NCBI GenBank assembly: GCA_900620265.3
Contig: UYNY03000102.1
Span: 1-33,095 of the forward strand
Length of the DNA: 33,095 bases
DNA from: Nitrosopumilaceae archaeon
GTDB lineage: Archaea > Thermoproteota > Nitrososphaeria > Nitrososphaerales > Nitrosopumilaceae
Direction: 5' to 3'
Under the pieces are notes generated by a model. It was not told the DNA's origin. It did not search any database and saw nothing but the letters and a program-made list of their open reading frames with translations. Below, piece after piece: positions 11,031 through 17,253 of this stretch (within the stretch, counting starts at the first letter, position 1; each line of letters begins with the position of its first letter). The position numbers and the translations under genes were made by a program.

Positions 11031-11837
11031 ATGGAGTCGGTCTCGTTCCAGGGCGAGCGGGGCGCGTACGGCGAGGCGGCGGCCGCGGGGTTCTTTGGCG
11101 CGTGCAGCACCGTCCCCTGCCGCACCTTTGCGGACGCGCTCGGAGCCGTCACCGGCGGGAGGGCCTCGCACGCCGTCATCCCGGTCGAGAACTCGCTGGA
11201 GGGGAGCGTCGGGGAGAGCCACGACCTGCTGTACAGGACGGGCCTGCGCGTCTCGGGCGAGATATACCACAGGATAGAGCACTGCCTGATAGGGGGAGGG
11301 ACGCTTGAGGAGGCGCGCACCGTCTACTCGCACCCGCAGGCGCTGGGCCAGTGCAGGAGGTTCATCGAGGAGAAAGGGCTGAGGACGATCCCGACCTATG
11401 ACACGGCCGGCAGCGTCAGGATAGTCAGGGAGCTCGGGAGGAGGGACTGCGCGTGCATCGCCAGCGAGGCCGCGTCGGCGATACACGGCGTGCCGGTGAT
11501 AGCAAGGGGGATAGCGGACGAGCCGGGCAACACGACGCGGTTCCTCGTCCTGTCCGGGTCGTGCCCGCCGCCGAGCGGCCGCGACAAGACGTCCCTGATA
11601 TTCTCGATAAGGCACGAGCCGGGCTCGCTGTGCAGGCTGCTCGAGGCGTTCCACGGGGGCGGGATCAACCTGACAAAGATCGAGTCGAGGCCGTCGGGAG
11701 GGGGCGGCTCGTGGGAGTACAACTTTTACGTGGACATAGAGGGGCACGCCGACGACCCGGCCGTGCGAGCCGCACTTGACGGCGCGGCGCGGGAGGCCGT
11801 CTCATCAAAGGTGCTCGGGTCGTATCCGGCCGCCTAG
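11031..11837 (+). CDS. pheA: prephenate dehydratase
   Basis: The 268-residue monofunctional enzyme converts prephenate to phenylpyruvate for phenylalanine synthesis. The catalytic domain begins VSFQGERGAYGEAAA and carries VENSLEGSV (52-60) and the catalytic Thr-Arg-Phe at 169-171 (NTTRF). A C-terminal ACT domain with GSLCRLLEAF and the ESRP motif (218-221) should bind phenylalanine for feedback control. There is no chorismate mutase domain. The ATG lies one base after the csl4 stop, so the genes form an operon. The stop overlaps that of the convergent gene in a shared CTAG. Confidence 0.93.
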   Translation: MESVSFQGERGAYGEAAAAGFFGACSTVPCRTFADALGAVTGGRASHAVIPVENSLEGSVGESHDLLYRTGLRVSGEIYHRIEHCLIGGGTLEEARTVYSHPQALGQCRRFIEEKGLRTIPTYDTAGSVRIVRELGRRDCACIASEAASAIHGVPVIARGIADEPGNTTRFLVLSGSCPPPSGRDKTSLIFSIRHEPGSLCRLLEAFHGGGINLTKIESRPSGGGGSWEYNFYVDIEGHADDPAVRAALDGAAREAVSSKVLGSYPAA

Positions 11838-12295
11838 AACCCGCGGGGCCGCCTCATGCGGAACCCGATGCCGAGCCCGACTATGACGATCCCCGTCACC
11901 ATGACCATCAGCGGGTACGTCACCAGCAGCGGGTCCGGCGGGGTCTCGAACGAGTACGAGACCGTGACGTCCCCGGCGCCGGCGTTGCGCACGGTCAGGC
12001 GCGACTGGCCGTCCTCGGCGTGGGACCACGCGAACTCCTCGCCGTCCTCGCCCGCGTGCCCGTCAAGCTGCAGGCCGCCCGGGCTTGAAAGGTCGACCGT
12101 ATACGGGCCGCCGGAGACGGAGAACCGGTGCTCGGAGCCGGCCGGCGCCACGAACGAGTACGCGTCGTCAAAGCCGGGCCCCACCAGGGACTCGCCGCTT
12201 ATGTGGGTGGTGAGGAGGCTGTTTGCAAGCGCGGCTACACCTATCGCCAGGATCACGACTCCCGCGGCGATCCCCGCGTAGGTGCGCCAGCTCAC
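11834..12295 (-). CDS. two-TM membrane protein with an extracytoplasmic domain, unknown function
   Basis: The 153-residue protein has transmembrane segments at about residues 6-27 and 127-145. Between them are about 100 residues rich in Gly, Ser and Asp with alternating hydrophobics, suggesting a small beta-sandwich (FSVSGGPYTVDLSSPGG, LTVRNAGAGDVTVSYSFE). The C-terminus ends in a basic RMRRPRGF tail, so both ends are probably cytoplasmic. I recognise no family. The GTG start is set by a TATA-like element 27 nt upstream. Confidence 0.75.
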   Translation of the reverse strand: MSWRTYAGIAAGVVILAIGVAALANSLLTTHISGESLVGPGFDDAYSFVAPAGSEHRFSVSGGPYTVDLSSPGGLQLDGHAGEDGEEFAWSHAEDGQSRLTVRNAGAGDVTVSYSFETPPDPLLVTYPLMVMVTGIVIVGLGIGFRMRRPRGF

Positions 12296-12317
12296 GCGGC
12301 GCGGGCGGGGGGCCCGG

Positions 12318-12326
12318 GTTAAAAAT
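12318..12326 (-). promoter_or_regulatory. TATA box of the two-TM protein
   Basis: The minus strand reads ATTTTTAAC, centred 27 nt upstream of the GTG at 12295. Confidence 0.55.
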
Positions 12327-12395
12327 GGTTGGCAGGGGGATCGGCGGTTCCGGGGAGGCGGGTACCGGATCTTGGCGGGGGACGGTCATCCTGAG

Positions 12396-12403
12396 TTTAT
12401 ATA
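12396..12403 (+). promoter_or_regulatory. TATA box of the 64-residue protein
   Basis: TTTATATA, one of the best TATA matches in the window, is centred about 26 nt upstream of the ATG at 12426. Confidence 0.7.
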
Positions 12404-12425
12404 GACGGGCCGCCTCACCCGCCCC

Positions 12426-12620
12426 ATGGTAATGAACATCATAAAGCCGCTCAGCGAGGACGGATGGAAAAACCTGATGGACGTGATGGAGCGCGGCCCT
12501 ACAAAAGAACAGAGGGAGATGTACAGGGACTCCGAGAAGGTGTTCAGGGAGACCAGATGGGGGGACGGCGCCGGATCATCCGGTGGCAAACCGCCCGCGA
12601 TCCCGCAGGATCCCGCATGA
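12426..12620 (+). CDS. small soluble protein, unknown function (64 residues)
   Basis: The protein begins MVMNIIKPLSEDGWKNLM. It has a charged, probably helical core up to about residue 44, then a Gly/Ser/Pro tail. There is no signal peptide, metal motif or family I recognise. A strong TATA box at leaderless spacing and a natural-looking hydrophilic sequence make it a likely real gene. It stands alone, divergent from the two-TM protein. Confidence 0.65.
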   Translation: MVMNIIKPLSEDGWKNLMDVMERGPTKEQREMYRDSEKVFRETRWGDGAGSSGGKPPAIPQDPA

Positions 12621-12870
12621 CGCGGCGGTCCCGGGCCGGTTTAAGAGTGAAAAAGGCCGCATGGCGGCGCGCTTGAAGCTTGGTGATCAAGGCGGCCGAG
12701 CTGGCCGCGCGCGCGGGATTACAAGATGCAGCTGCCGGGCGCGTCTGCCGGCGTCTTCGGTCAAGAGGGGCGTGCCGGGCCGGATGTGAAGTTTCGGGAG
12801 ATCCCCGCGTCCCTGTATGGCGGGATTGTGGGGCACGGGGGCCATGGCGGCGGCAGGTATCGCGCGGGGG
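12621..12870. other. no supported gene
   Basis: A TATA-like TTTAAG lies at 12640-12645, and a frame beginning TTG GTG ATC near 12680 reads VIKAAELAARAGL. It then degenerates into Arg/Cys-rich sequence running antisense through the decayed gene copy. It may be a remnant. I see nothing firm. Confidence 0.35.
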
Positions 12871-13032
12871 CCACACCGGCGTCTTTCTGCCGCCGGGCGG
12901 CTTGGGGAACTCGCGCCGCCTCCTCGCGGCCTCCCTCCGCCTCTTGTGGGACCTGTACAGGTGGGATCTCGCACCGTATCTGCCCGGCAGGGGGCATCAG
13001 GCCATCGGATCCTGCGCCCCGTGCTCGTCATC
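12871..13032 (-). pseudogene. decayed copy of the small membrane-protein gene at 15580-15756
   Basis: The minus strand is clearly homologous to the intact gene at 15580-15756. The tail reads HLYRSHKRRREAARRRREF then PKPPGGRKTPV, almost the same as the intact copy. Three lesions are visible. The stop TGA has become TGG at 12871-12873. An insertion just before the HLYRSHK part shifts the frame. A stop appears in the frame of the N-terminal remnant (DDEHGAQDPMA). Relative to the intact gene it also lacks 9 nt in the arginine-rich part. There is no ATG at the homologous start. Confidence 0.75.
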
Positions 13033-13199
13033 GGCCGTGCCGTCCCCGGCAACCACGCCGTGGAAGCCCAGGCGCCGCCCTGTCCCGCGCGCGGGATCCG
13101 CGCCCCTGCCGCACGGAATAAAGGCGCGCACTGACCGTCAGGGTGTGTCTTTTCCGCGCATCCTGCACATTTCGTCGGGGACGGCGCGCGCAGGCGCGG

Positions 13200-13208
13200 T
13201 TTAAATAA
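13200..13208 (+). promoter_or_regulatory. TATA box of the secreted-protein pair
   Basis: TTTAAATAA is centred about 26 nt upstream of the ATG at 13229. It is too close to the earlier in-frame ATG at 13217, so the later ATG is the start. Confidence 0.65.
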
Positions 13209-13228
13209 GAAGAGGGATGGCGCAGGGC

Positions 13229-14455
13229 ATGAAGATGGCCATGCCCGTGGCGGGACTGCTTTTGGCGCTAGCCGTGGCCCCAACTGTGGCGCTTGTCCAA
13301 GCAGACAACGGCACATATGCAACAAGCGTGGACGAGGCTATGGAAACTGGGATCACCGCCATAGACCAGATAGAGGAGCTTTCACGTCAGGCCCTCGCAA
13401 GCGGCGAGATACCAATCTCCGAGATGCCAGCCAGGACGGGTGACTCGTGGCAGTGGGAATACGGCAGCATGGCCGAGTTCAGGGCCAACGACGCGTTTAC
13501 GCGATCCTTCATCAACACGCATCTTGAGGGCCACGAATGGAACAGGGTAAACGCCGAACACCACCTGAGGATATACAACTTCGAGACCATCACCGGGGCC
13601 GTGGGGCATGGCCACGAGATGGCCTTGCTCGTGTCAGAGCTGAAAAAACTCCAGGACAGATATGATGCCAGCGAACCAGTGGAAAAATTCCACGCATGGC
13701 TTGGGGCCAAATATACAACACCGGTGTCCGAGCAAGGAATAATTGACAGACTGGCAGAGATAACCGGTGATGAAAAATTCCTAGGACTTGCAGAAAAGGC
13801 CGCGGAGAGCTTTGACAAGTTGGTGGAAAACGGCATCCCCCCCAGCGACATATTCAATTCAGACTATGAATACTGGCTACAGATCTCTCACGACTACATG
13901 TGTGGGTTTGTGCAATGGTGTGATTCAGGATCGTTCGGGAATGCCGCTGTTATAGGTGCAGTCAAGACAGATGCAGTTAGGTGGGATGTATGGGACTATT
14001 TCCTTCCGGAGGCAAGTGCACAGAGTAAGGTCTATGTACCGTACAACCTCGTATTGTACATATTCATAACTTCCTGCGAGTTGAACTACAAGATGTGCAG
14101 TATTACAGAGATAAAGAAGATACGCGGCGGTCAGGGCGAGTTTGAGATACCCGAGTTGACGAATACGGACGACCATCCCGTCATCGGGGCATTCGCACAC
14201 ACCACAGGAGGGACGCTGACCGTCGGGGGCAGCGCATGTGTGGAGAGGAGCCCGTCCGGCAAATATCCGGGCATCATTACCGATGTAAGGGTGGTTCCAA
14301 TCTCGGATAGAACGTACCAATACGGCTCAAGCGCCGGCGATGCCCAGAGGGACAAGAAGTGCTCGTCGGCCATTGCGATTCATGAGATACCCACCGGCAG
14401 GAATACGCCCTTTGGCGGCAAGGCGTCATCCACCGGGCCATATTATCTGAGGTAG
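13229..14455 (+). CDS. secreted protein of unknown function (408 residues)
   Basis: The protein opens with a classic signal peptide (MKMAMPVAGLLLALAVAPTV, probable cleavage after VQA). The N-terminal half is helical and rich in charged and His residues (GHEWNRVNAEHHLR, GAVGHGHEM). The C-terminal half has six cysteines in MCGFVQWC, SCELNYKMC, GSACVE and KKCSS, suggesting disulfides, and ends in a beta-rich, Gly/Ser-rich part. No catalytic motif or family is recognised. Between about 13600 and 14120 the codons are clearly AT-richer than in the neighbours, which hints at foreign origin. The next gene begins 10 bases later, so both are probably cotranscribed. Confidence 0.75.
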   Translation: MKMAMPVAGLLLALAVAPTVALVQADNGTYATSVDEAMETGITAIDQIEELSRQALASGEIPISEMPARTGDSWQWEYGSMAEFRANDAFTRSFINTHLEGHEWNRVNAEHHLRIYNFETITGAVGHGHEMALLVSELKKLQDRYDASEPVEKFHAWLGAKYTTPVSEQGIIDRLAEITGDEKFLGLAEKAAESFDKLVENGIPPSDIFNSDYEYWLQISHDYMCGFVQWCDSGSFGNAAVIGAVKTDAVRWDVWDYFLPEASAQSKVYVPYNLVLYIFITSCELNYKMCSITEIKKIRGGQGEFEIPELTNTDDHPVIGAFAHTTGGTLTVGGSACVERSPSGKYPGIITDVRVVPISDRTYQYGSSAGDAQRDKKCSSAIAIHEIPTGRNTPFGGKASSTGPYYLR

Positions 14456-14465
14456 ATCACCGCGC

Positions 14466-15527
14466 ATGGGCACGAACCTCCTGGTGCTCGTGTCGGCATC
14501 GGCGGCCGCCATGGTGCTCGTATCCGTGGGCTACCAGCCGCTACACGACTATGCAGAGTACAAGGCGGAGCGCGCCCCCTACCTGCCCATAGCCGGCCTA
14601 AAGCCGGAGTTTGAGCCCCTGCTGATAGAGCCGCTCGCGGACAGGCCCAGGATCAGGCATCCGGGGGAGACGGAGGTCGGCTACTCGTACGCGGAGTACC
14701 ATCCCGGGGACGGGTCCGTCACGCTCACGTACGACGACACGTACTATAATGCCCACGGCATGCACCTCGGATACAGGGAGCCCAGCGGCCAGGTCCACAA
14801 CCAGACGTACCACCCGGGCCAGACGTTCGCGTACGCGTGCCAGGAGCTCGACGGGTTCAACCGGGTCGGCATGTTCCAGTACAGGGGCGCCGGCTCGTTC
14901 CACGGGGCCACCACGCTAAAGCTGGTGCACTTTGACCTGCTGGTTCCAGACACCGTGCCGTGCGACTTTCCCGGGTACCTAGTGAACACGGTCGACATCT
15001 ATGACGCGGGCTGGTTTGACGGCTCCTACGACCTCGAGCCGTACGGAGGCCCGCCCGAGAACGCGACCGAGCACGAGATCAGGTACGTGCTGCCAGTAAG
15101 GCACATGGTAAAGGAGCTCCCGTTTACGGTCGACGCCATCCAGCCAAAGCACCTGCCGGTGGGGACCCCCGGGTACATGATCGACCTCAACCCCGACGGC
15201 TCGATCACCGTGGAGTATACGGCCGACGGCGTGAAGCTCGTGCGCACGTACGAGCCCGGGCAGTCGTTCGTGACGAGCTGCCTGAACGAGGGCGACACGA
15301 CCATGCTCGGCGTCCACTACCACCGGGGGGTCGAGGAGGTCTACGGCAAGGACGGCACCTCGCTGGTGCTCGGCTGGTTCAAGGGGTACACAAAGTCCCC
15401 CGTGCCGTGCACGTACCCCGACTATGTCACGGACCTAGTCGACGTGGTGGACGCGGGCATGCTGGACCGCCACTATTACATGAAGTTCTACGACTGGAGC
15501 ATCGAGCCGTTCGGCGGGCCCCCCTAG
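14466..15527 (+). CDS. secreted or anchored protein with two copies of one domain, unknown function
   Basis: The 353-residue protein has an N-terminal hydrophobic segment (residues 4-22) that acts as signal peptide or anchor. Two homologous units follow, at about 65-197 and 230-353. Each has a YHPGQTF / YEPGQSF motif (115-121 and 262-268) and a cysteine 8 residues after the PGQ (C125, C272). Each then has a second cysteine in VPCDFPGY / VPCTYPDY (C166, C315), a VDIYDAG / VDVVDAG turn and a closing EPYGGPP / EPFGGPP. One disulfide per unit is likely. I do not recognise the domain. The start ATG is ten bases after the previous stop. Confidence 0.78.
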   Translation: MGTNLLVLVSASAAAMVLVSVGYQPLHDYAEYKAERAPYLPIAGLKPEFEPLLIEPLADRPRIRHPGETEVGYSYAEYHPGDGSVTLTYDDTYYNAHGMHLGYREPSGQVHNQTYHPGQTFAYACQELDGFNRVGMFQYRGAGSFHGATTLKLVHFDLLVPDTVPCDFPGYLVNTVDIYDAGWFDGSYDLEPYGGPPENATEHEIRYVLPVRHMVKELPFTVDAIQPKHLPVGTPGYMIDLNPDGSITVEYTADGVKLVRTYEPGQSFVTSCLNEGDTTMLGVHYHRGVEEVYGKDGTSLVLGWFKGYTKSPVPCTYPDYVTDLVDVVDAGMLDRHYYMKFYDWSIEPFGGPP

Positions 15528-15579
15528 CCCCACGCGCATGTTACGCCGGGAACGGGACGCGGGGGATGCGCCGCCCGGG

Positions 15580-15756
15580 TCACACCGGCGTCTTTCTGCC
15601 GCCGGGCGGCTTGAGGAACTCGCGCCTCTCGCGCCGCCTCCTCTCGGCCTCCTTCCGCCTCTTGTGGGACCTGTACAGGTGGATCCCGTACAGTATCGAC
15701 CCTGCAAGGACCACCGGGGCCGCCAGGTCCCAGGCGCTCGGCTCGTCGTCACCCAT
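15580..15756 (-). CDS. small single-TM protein with a strongly basic tail, unknown function (58 residues)
   Basis: The minus strand encodes MGDDEPSAWDLAAP, a transmembrane segment (about residues 10-28, VVLAGSILYGIHLY) and then a tail with HKRRKEAERRRRERREF, ending PPGGRKTPV. An acidic N-terminus and a very basic C-terminus imply that the tail is cytoplasmic. A TATA-like element 27 nt upstream of the ATG supports expression. A decayed second copy lies at 12871-13032 in the same orientation, and the pair brackets the two secreted-protein genes. No family is recognised. Confidence 0.75.
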   Translation of the reverse strand: MGDDEPSAWDLAAPVVLAGSILYGIHLYRSHKRRKEAERRRRERREFLKPPGGRKTPV

Positions 15757-15779
15757 GCCACGCCTGCGGCGGGGCCCGG

Positions 15780-15786
15780 GATATAG
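15780..15786 (-). promoter_or_regulatory. TATA box of the small single-TM protein
   Basis: The minus strand reads CTATATC, centred 27 nt upstream of the ATG at 15756. Confidence 0.6.
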
Positions 15787-15822
15787 GCGACACTGCGCGA
15801 CCGTGCTTACCGTCCTTACCTT

Positions 15823-17253
15823 TCAGACCACCGAGACGTCGTGCGGCTGGCTCTCGGCGAACCCGGCCCGCGACATCTTGATGAACTCGGCGTTCTCCTG
15901 CATCTGCGGGATCGTGTGCGCCCCGCAGTAGCTGAGCCCGGAGCGGAGCCCGCCCGCGAGCTGCTTTATGATGTCGGTGACCGACCCCTTGTGCGGCACC
16001 ATCGCCTCGACGCCCTCGGCGACATAGTCGTTCAGGTCCGCGTCCGGCGGCGGGGCGGCGCCCTCCTTTGCCTTGCGCCCGATCGAGGCGGCAAGCGACG
16101 CCATGCCGCGGTACACCTTGAAGCGCTTGCCGTTCTTGGTAAGGACGGTCCCCGGCGACTCGTCGGTCCCCCCGAGCATGCCGCCGAGCATCACGGACGA
16201 GGCGCCGGCGGCCAGCGCCTTTGTCGCGTCGCCGGACGTCCTGGTGCCGCCGTCTGATATCAGCGGTACGCCGTGGTCGCGGCACGCCGCGGCGCAGTCC
16301 ATCACGGCGGTCAGCTGCGGCACGCCCGACCCCGTGACGACGCGCGTGATGCAGATGGAACCGGACCCCACGCCGACCTTTACGGCGTCGACGCCGGCCC
16401 TGATCAGGTCCTCGGCGCCAGCCGCCGTCGCGATGTTGCCCGCGATGAGCTCGCAGTCGGGGAACGCCTTTTTTATGCTGCGGACGGTGCCAAGCTCGTT
16501 CTCGCTGTGGCCGTGCGCGATATCTACCACAAGCACGTCGGCCCCGGCGCCGAGCAGCGCCTCGCTGCGCTCCAAAAAGTCGCCCCTGACGCCGACGGCC
16601 GCGCCCACCAGCGGCCTCCCCTTGCCGTCCTTTGAGGCGTCCGGATAGTCGGCCGCGTTGGTGATGTCCTTGCTGGTCACCAGCCCGCGGATCTGCCCCG
16701 TGCCGTCGGTGATGGGCAGCTTTTCGATCCTGTGCTCGTGCATCAGCCGCTTTGCCTCCTCCGCCGAGACGCCGGGCCTCGCAGTGACGACGTCACGCGT
16801 CATGACGTCGGCGACCCGGCCGGCGTGATCCGCGAACAGGAGGTCCCTCTCGGTGATGATGCCGGCGAGCCTGCCGTCGGGACCTGCCACCAGCAGCCCC
16901 GAGACGCCCTTCTCCGCCGCGTACGCCAGGGCGCCGCCCACCGTCCGGTCCGGCGGTATGGTGTACGGGCTCTCGATGACGACGCTGCCCGAGCGCTTTA
17001 CCTTTAGCACCTCGCCGGCCTGCTCGGCGATCGTCAGGAAGCGGTGTATGATGCCGATGCCGCCGGCCCGGGCCATCGCGACTGCCATCGACGACTCTGT
17101 GACCGTGTCCATGTTGGCGCTCACGAACGGGATGTTCAGCCGGATGTTCCTCGAGAGCCGCGTCCCGAGGTCCGTCTGGCTCCTGCTGGAGATGTCAGAG
17201 TACTTGGGGACGAGTAGAACGTCGTCAAAGGTAAGCCCGTCCCGGATCTCCAA
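15823..17253 (-). CDS. guaB: inosine-5'-monophosphate dehydrogenase
   Basis: The 476-residue enzyme oxidises IMP to XMP with NAD, the first committed step to GMP. It begins MEIRDGLTFDDVLLVPK, the usual family start. Two CBS domains lie at about residues 90-200, inserted in the barrel (VADVMTRDVVTARPG). The catalytic Cys301 sits in VGVGSGSICITR. The phosphate-binding SDGGTRTSGD and the flap residues of KVYRGMASLAA are present. The start is a TTG. A TATA-like TTATAATC about 33 nt upstream implies a leader of only a few bases. guaA lies 2.3 kb away on the other strand. Confidence 0.95.
   Translation of the reverse strand: MEIRDGLTFDDVLLVPKYSDISSRSQTDLGTRLSRNIRLNIPFVSANMDTVTESSMAVAMARAGGIGIIHRFLTIAEQAGEVLKVKRSGSVVIESPYTIPPDRTVGGALAYAAEKGVSGLLVAGPDGRLAGIITERDLLFADHAGRVADVMTRDVVTARPGVSAEEAKRLMHEHRIEKLPITDGTGQIRGLVTSKDITNAADYPDASKDGKGRPLVGAAVGVRGDFLERSEALLGAGADVLVVDIAHGHSENELGTVRSIKKAFPDCELIAGNIATAAGAEDLIRAGVDAVKVGVGSGSICITRVVTGSGVPQLTAVMDCAAACRDHGVPLISDGGTRTSGDATKALAAGASSVMLGGMLGGTDESPGTVLTKNGKRFKVYRGMASLAASIGRKAKEGAAPPPDADLNDYVAEGVEAMVPHKGSVTDIIKQLAGGLRSGLSYCGAHTIPQMQENAEFIKMSRAGFAESQPHDVSVV

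What the first reader, a model, noticed from the sequence alone, without database searches (positions are those of the whole stretch)
12871..15756. Secreted-protein module bracketed by an intact and a decayed copy of one small gene
The sequence at 12871-13032 is a degenerate paralog of the 58-residue gene at 15580-15756, in the same orientation. Between them lie only two genes, both for exported proteins I cannot assign, one with AT-richer codons. Direct repeats around an unusual cargo suggest acquisition or duplication by recombination, and the module may recur elsewhere with other cargo.
Basis: partly seen in the sequence, partly recalled or inferred. Interest (0 to 1): 0.6.

Follow-up and report, generated by a model that had tools for sequence, protein, structure and literature searches.

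The report
Inserted exported-protein pair in ammonia-oxidising archaeon
A marine ammonia-oxidising archaeon carries a lineage-specific insertion encoding two exported proteins that form a recurring, fast-changing gene pair in its relatives, perhaps a released weapon or signal with a membrane-bound partner; the duplicated small gene around it is real but a side feature.

Summary
An intact 58-codon gene (15580-15756, minus) and a decayed paralog (12874-13035, minus) bracket two plus-strand exported-protein genes, c1 (13217-14455) and c2 (14466-15527). No other copy of the small gene exists in the genome, and no convincing homolog in about 400 class genomes.

The repeats are not the ends of a mobile element. 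The inserted stretch is the whole 3.5 kb between guaB and gene 11834-12295. In 17 relatives, including the two nearest, these genes lie 41-51 bp apart.

The stronger finding is the cargo. c1 followed by c2 is a recurring, patchy two-gene module of Nitrosopumilaceae. It recurs in the same genome (a 40% GC c1 directly against a 69% GC c2) and in other genera, duplicated beside IS630-type transposases in one and reduced to a scar in another.

c1 has a signal peptide, a conserved helical domain, an internal (L/I)PxAxA site and a hypervariable Cys-containing beta domain. c2 is a membrane-anchored beta protein. Neither matches Pfam, NCBIfam or PDB.

I propose that c1 is a secreted pro-protein releasing its C-terminal effector, with c2 as surface partner or immunity protein, like halocin C8 or VARTIG modules. 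The anatomy is shown; the function is inferred.

The parts
12296..15822 (.). lineage-specific insertion between gene 11834-12295 and guaB
   Evidence: In 17 relatives the flanking genes are 41-51 bp apart, including the nearest ones G256 and G271
12874..13035 (-). decayed paralog of the 58-aa gene (start lost, frame broken, 9-bp deletion, stop lost)
12951..12962 (.). 12-bp palindrome ACCTGTACAGGT at the 5' edge of the high-identity half of the relic
   Evidence: two sites in window, 0.02 expected
13200..13207 (+). TATA-like box TTTAAATA, 29 nt before the ATG at 13229 (probable leaderless start of c1)
   Evidence: sequence
13217..14455 (+). c1: exported 412-aa pro-protein-like gene, GC3 0.65
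   Evidence: family:
13403..13924 (+). c1 conserved helical domain (residues 63-236)
   Evidence: AF2 pLDDT mostly 67-96; mean pairwise identity 37%
14000..14020 (+). internal FLPEASA motif (residues 262-268), proposed processing site; both alanines invariant in the 11-row alignment
14024..14452 (+). c1 C-terminal beta domain with CxYxxC-type cysteines, hypervariable
   Evidence: AF2; mean pairwise identity 21%
14466..15527 (+). c2: N-terminal TM helix plus two homologous extracellular beta domains, GC3 0.91
   Evidence: AF2 pLDDT 81.9; domain 1 against 2 E = 9e-14
15580..15756 (-). intact 58-aa gene: one TM helix plus basic tail; no convincing homolog found
15669..15680 (.). second copy of the palindrome ACCTGTACAGGT
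15780..15785 (-). TATA-like TATATC 29 nt upstream of the small gene's ATG, absent from the relic
15823..17253 (-). guaB (IMP dehydrogenase), right flank of the insertion
   Evidence: Pfam IMPDH E = 2e-143
11834..12295 (-). conserved membrane protein gene that directly follows guaB in relatives, left flank

Best explanation
A 3.5-kb lineage-specific insertion in the guaB spacer carries a horizontally shuffled two-gene exported module. c1 is a pro-protein: signal peptide, conserved helical domain, internal (L/I)PxAxA site, then a variable disulfide-type beta domain. c2 is a surface-anchored beta protein translated right behind it. Most likely c1 is cleaved outside the cell at the PxAxA site to free its C-terminal effector, and c2 binds it on the producer's own surface as immunity or partner protein; the unpaired c2 copies elsewhere in the genome would be spare immunity or receptor genes. 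The 58-aa gene is an unrelated lineage-specific small membrane protein that was duplicated; one copy decayed, and their 3' halves were homogenised by recombination. Shown: insertion, pairing, sequence anatomy, compositional mismatch, turnover. Inferred: horizontal transfer, export, cleavage, c1-c2 binding, antagonistic role, recombination of the repeats.
For: Empty site in 17 relatives. c1-c2 order and orientation kept in the window, own contig C23 (4-bp overlap), G009, G120, G173 (twice), G153 and G097, and in a deletion scar in G256 whose remaining pieces are about 65% identical to the window pair. Internal PxAxA-type motif: 10 of 11 internal hits among 615 predicted genes are c1-family rows. 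The C-terminal domain is less conserved than the helical one in 45 of 45 pairs, 21% against 37%. c1 GC3 disagrees with the host in both directions: 0.34 and 0.65 against guaB 0.92; 0.64 against 0.37 in G164. G173 copies are a 95% identical 2.9-kb duplication beside DDE_3 transposases. Other c1 genes are followed by unrelated exported or TM proteins. c2 without a detectable c1 beside it: C56 twice, C87, G271 twice.
Against: No toxin, protease or binding domain is recognised; fold searches gave no credible match. No cleavage, binding or growth inhibition is shown. The hydrophobic stretch before PxAxA is short for a signal-peptidase site. The c1 C-terminal fold is only moderately confident (pLDDT about 45-82). 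The motif count includes overlapping records of the same G173 genes, so independent cases are about eight. Some c1 copies have a non-c2 neighbour, so pairing is not strict.
Confidence: 0.4

Rival explanations
1. Surface recognition or adhesion module: c1 and c2 form a complex on the cell surface for cell-cell or host contact; variability reflects self/non-self recognition or host adaptation rather than killing.
For: c2 is membrane-anchored with beta domains expanded from one to about five repeats, as in adhesins; variable exported partners behind c1; the genome also holds TSP3-like repeat and Ig-like surface proteins near c2 paralogs.
Against: A conserved internal PxAxA site and a hypervariable Cys-containing C-terminus are not needed by an adhesin; c2 copies without c1 fit immunity or receptor roles.
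Confidence: 0.3
2. Secreted hydrolase or binding protein with a membrane-anchored inhibitor, chaperone or receptor, used in nutrition.
For: Helical pro-domain plus beta domain resembles zymogens in layout; an S1-protease-like gene (AGHC and GDSGG motifs) lies beside the pair in G173.
Against: No enzyme family or fold match; His328 is the only invariant polar residue besides cysteines; patchy presence (13 of 400 genomes) fits conflict better than core nutrition.
Confidence: 0.15
3. One reading: a repeat-bordered module in which the 58-aa gene is part of the mobile unit and moves cargo by recombination.
For: Direct repeats flank the pair; their 3' halves are nearly identical and begin at a palindrome, a step consistent with recombination.
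Against: The small gene occurs nowhere else in this genome and has no convincing homolog in about 400 class genomes; c1-c2 occur elsewhere without it; the insert extends 575 bp beyond the left copy; no integrase or transposase in the insert.
Confidence: 0.08

Closest known systems
Halocin C8 precursor ProC8 / HalI (haloarchaeal archaeocin; PMC11509114)
   Same: Exported archaeal pro-protein whose N-terminal part and C-terminal effector part are separate functional units released by processing; self-protection is encoded with it.
   Different: No sequence match to a known family found; the C-terminal domain here is about 140 aa, not 76 aa; the proposed immunity function lies in a second gene (c2); no activity shown.
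VARTIG modules of Thermococcales (PMC8416519)
   Same: Upstream exported protein followed by variable downstream genes for small TM proteins; hypervariable, patchy, recently acquired islands; function unknown.
   Different: VARTIG is centred on large Ig-domain proteins of arCOG07710; c1 is a 380-430-aa helical plus beta protein with a PxAxA site and no Pfam match.
Polymorphic toxin / immunity pairs
   Same: Conserved N-terminal part, divergent C-terminal part, neighbouring partner gene, extra unpaired partner copies.
   Different: No known toxin domain, no known delivery system; the partner is membrane-anchored and extracellular.

Membership tests
Transposable or integrative element with repeats at its ends | repeats coincide with the ends of the inserted DNA | tested here: not met
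   Insert spans 12296-15822; left copy starts about 575 bp inside it
Transposable or integrative element with repeats at its ends | integrase or transposase in the element | tested here: not met
   Only c1, c2, the 58-aa gene and a 64-aa ORF lie in the insert; no tRNA or Rfam match
Transposable or integrative element with repeats at its ends | same flanking sequence at other insertions | tested here: not met
   Repeat found only twice, both here
Halocin C8-type archaeocin | exported precursor (N-terminal signal) | tested here: inconclusive
   N-terminal hydrophobic signal-like segment seen in the sequence; no signal predictor available
Halocin C8-type archaeocin | sequence homology to known halocins | tested here: inconclusive
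   No Pfam or NCBIfam family match; no direct comparison with a halocin sequence was made
Halocin C8-type archaeocin | processing and antimicrobial activity | not testable with these tools
   needs protein work
VARTIG | upstream protein with immunoglobulin domains (arCOG07710) | tested here: not met
   No Ig match in c1; one c2-family row has a weak Ig_mannosidase hit, E = 0.003
VARTIG | variable downstream TM genes | tested here: met
   c2 or unrelated exported/TM genes follow c1
Polymorphic toxin system | conserved N-terminal part, hypervariable C-terminal part | tested here: met
   37% against 21% identity, 45 of 45 pairs
Polymorphic toxin system | recognised toxin or immunity domain | tested here: not met

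The most novel reading that the evidence does not exclude
c1-c2 is the first archaeocin-like antagonism system of ammonia-oxidising archaea: a secreted precursor cut at a conserved PxAxA site to release a hypervariable effector, with membrane-anchored, repeat-expandable immunity proteins.
Probability: 0.3. Interest if true: 0.75.

Novelty: new variant of a known kind. Interest (0 to 1): 0.45.

Why it matters
Ammonia-oxidising archaea are among the most abundant microbes, yet I recall no defined weapon, self-recognition or variable surface system for them (own knowledge, not a literature test). A recurring exported pair that appears to be exchanged between lineages, with a conserved internal motif, gives a concrete test case in cultivable relatives (Nitrosopumilus). 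It also shows that the guaB spacer is a recurrent landing site for exported-protein genes.

Tried and rejected
1) att-site duplication (3'-end-only copy): rejected, the 5' halves are also homologous. 2) tRNA, Rfam RNA or other known RNA in the repeats: none. 3) Viral origin: no relatives of c1, c2 or the small gene in IMG/VR scans, none of c1 or c2 in phage records. 4) Small-gene homologs: best outside hits E = 0.005-0.09, TM plus basic tail only; treated as chance or convergence. 5) Fold search: top PDB rows for c1 and c2 have TM-scores of about 0.05-0.4 with mixed, unrelated families; not meaningful. 7) I first counted L114 15567-16808 as a third c1 in G173; its sequence shows an S1-protease-like protein, so it was dropped. 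8) Trees of c1 (helical part) are poorly resolved; window and C23 copies group at 90/88 only, so transfer is argued from composition and distribution, not from the tree.

Full report
Observation. The two copies are real and only these two exist in the genome. They are paralogs over the whole gene: the 5' halves are about 60% identical, beyond 19,861 random genomic segments, and the 3' halves about 94-97%. The step sits at a 12-bp palindrome present in both copies. The three base changes of the coding 3' part all alter the residue, and the stop is lost, so the similarity there reflects recent exchange or recency rather than protein constraint (inference). The left copy is a pseudogene: start codon, promoter-like segment, frame and stop are gone.

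Insertion. The window is contig C102 of a 2.0-Mb genome and is itself GC-rich; the only named relatives of c1 found are Nitrosopumilus MAGs. Gene order pheA - gene 11834 - guaB - folP - mptE - guaA is kept across relatives. Fifteen same-genus genomes have guaB and gene 11834 separated by 42-51 bp, and the nearest relatives by guaB identity, G256 and G271, by 41 bp. The window has 3.5 kb there. Other relatives carry different exported-protein genes in the same spacer: a 280-282-aa family in three, a 489-aa protein in one, and G164, another genus, has a c2-family gene next to guaB. The site is therefore a recurrent landing place, and the small gene, relic, c1, c2 and 12296-12870 all belong to the inserted stretch.

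The pair. c1 has relatives in 13 of 400 class genomes and c2 in 9, the window's genome included. c1 followed by c2 on the same strand is seen in the window (10-bp gap), own contig C23 (4-bp overlap), G009, G120, G173 twice, G153 and G097. In G256 a scar joins the first part of c1 to the end of c2, at 65-67% identity to the window pair, upstream of tatC/tatA-like genes, so an orthologous pair once sat elsewhere and was mostly deleted. In G173 the pair lies in a 2.9-kb, 95% identical duplication with 98.6% identical transposase copies of the DDE_3 type between. Several c1 copies are broken. This is fast gain, loss and movement.

Composition. In C23 the c1 gene is 40% GC (GC3 0.34) while the overlapping c2 is 69% (GC3 0.90), with sharp borders at the gene ends. 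The window c1 has GC3 0.65 against 0.92 for guaB. In GC-poor G164 one c1 is GC-richer than the host (0.64 against 0.37). Separate acquisitions of c1 are the simplest reading (inference).

Anatomy. c1: N-terminal signal-like segment; helical domain predicted with high confidence; low-confidence linker with a (L/I)P-x-A-x-A-type motif, both alanines invariant in the 11-row alignment; then a beta domain with invariant Cys287, Cys294, His328 and nearly invariant Cys341, Cys382. Internal occurrences of this motif are almost confined to the family. The C-terminal part is always less conserved. c2: one TM helix and one (most genomes), two (window, C56, C87, G271) or about five (C23) copies of a beta domain with an F...C...H...PC.(Y/F)P pattern. 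Neither has a significant match in Pfam, NCBIfam, PADLOC or PDB.

Function. A secreted pro-protein with a hypervariable, disulfide-type C-terminus and an adjacent membrane-anchored partner, with unpaired partner copies in the genome, is best explained by an antagonism or recognition module. Export, cleavage and binding are inferred. The layout is like halocin C8 (PMC11509114) and VARTIG (PMC8416519); VARTIG membership fails on the Ig-domain test, and halocin membership is not established.

The two structure predictions used alignments of window proteins with loci taken by the fetch from genomes.

Noticed in passing
L050 (G000 contig C87) 227-3463: Tandem array of five paralogous 85-101-aa genes (IKNTFSRxxNEYFTPATLFSLCRYGFPFEKLPEEAKEM...) beside a c2 paralog, with a tRNA-Ile prediction inside the array; no Pfam match for the one tested.
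   Followed up: partly
L047 (G000 contig C23) 10314-11558: A single gene of 40% GC with sharp borders inside about 70% GC DNA, overlapping its GC-rich neighbour by 4 bp.
   Followed up: yes
L048 and L049 (G000 contig C56): Two c2 paralogs on one contig, near long proteins with TSP3-like D-x-D-x-D repeats and a 1458-aa subtilase with Ig-like domains.
   Followed up: partly
L114 (G173) 15567-16808: Exported protein with S1-protease motifs (AGHC, GDSGG) next to the duplicated c1-c2 pair; no Pfam match; possible maturation protease.
   Followed up: partly
L132 (G150) 1538-2017: ORF resembling an integrase or recombinase N-terminal part directly upstream of a c2 gene; no Pfam match.
   Followed up: partly
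L061 10461-11309, L059 11134-11982, L072: A 280-282-aa exported protein family inserted in the same guaB spacer in three other relatives.
   Followed up: partly
L044 / G022 contig C6 65547-66230: guaB of G022 is read in two pieces with a stop inside, so a frameshift or assembly error in a core gene.
   Followed up: no
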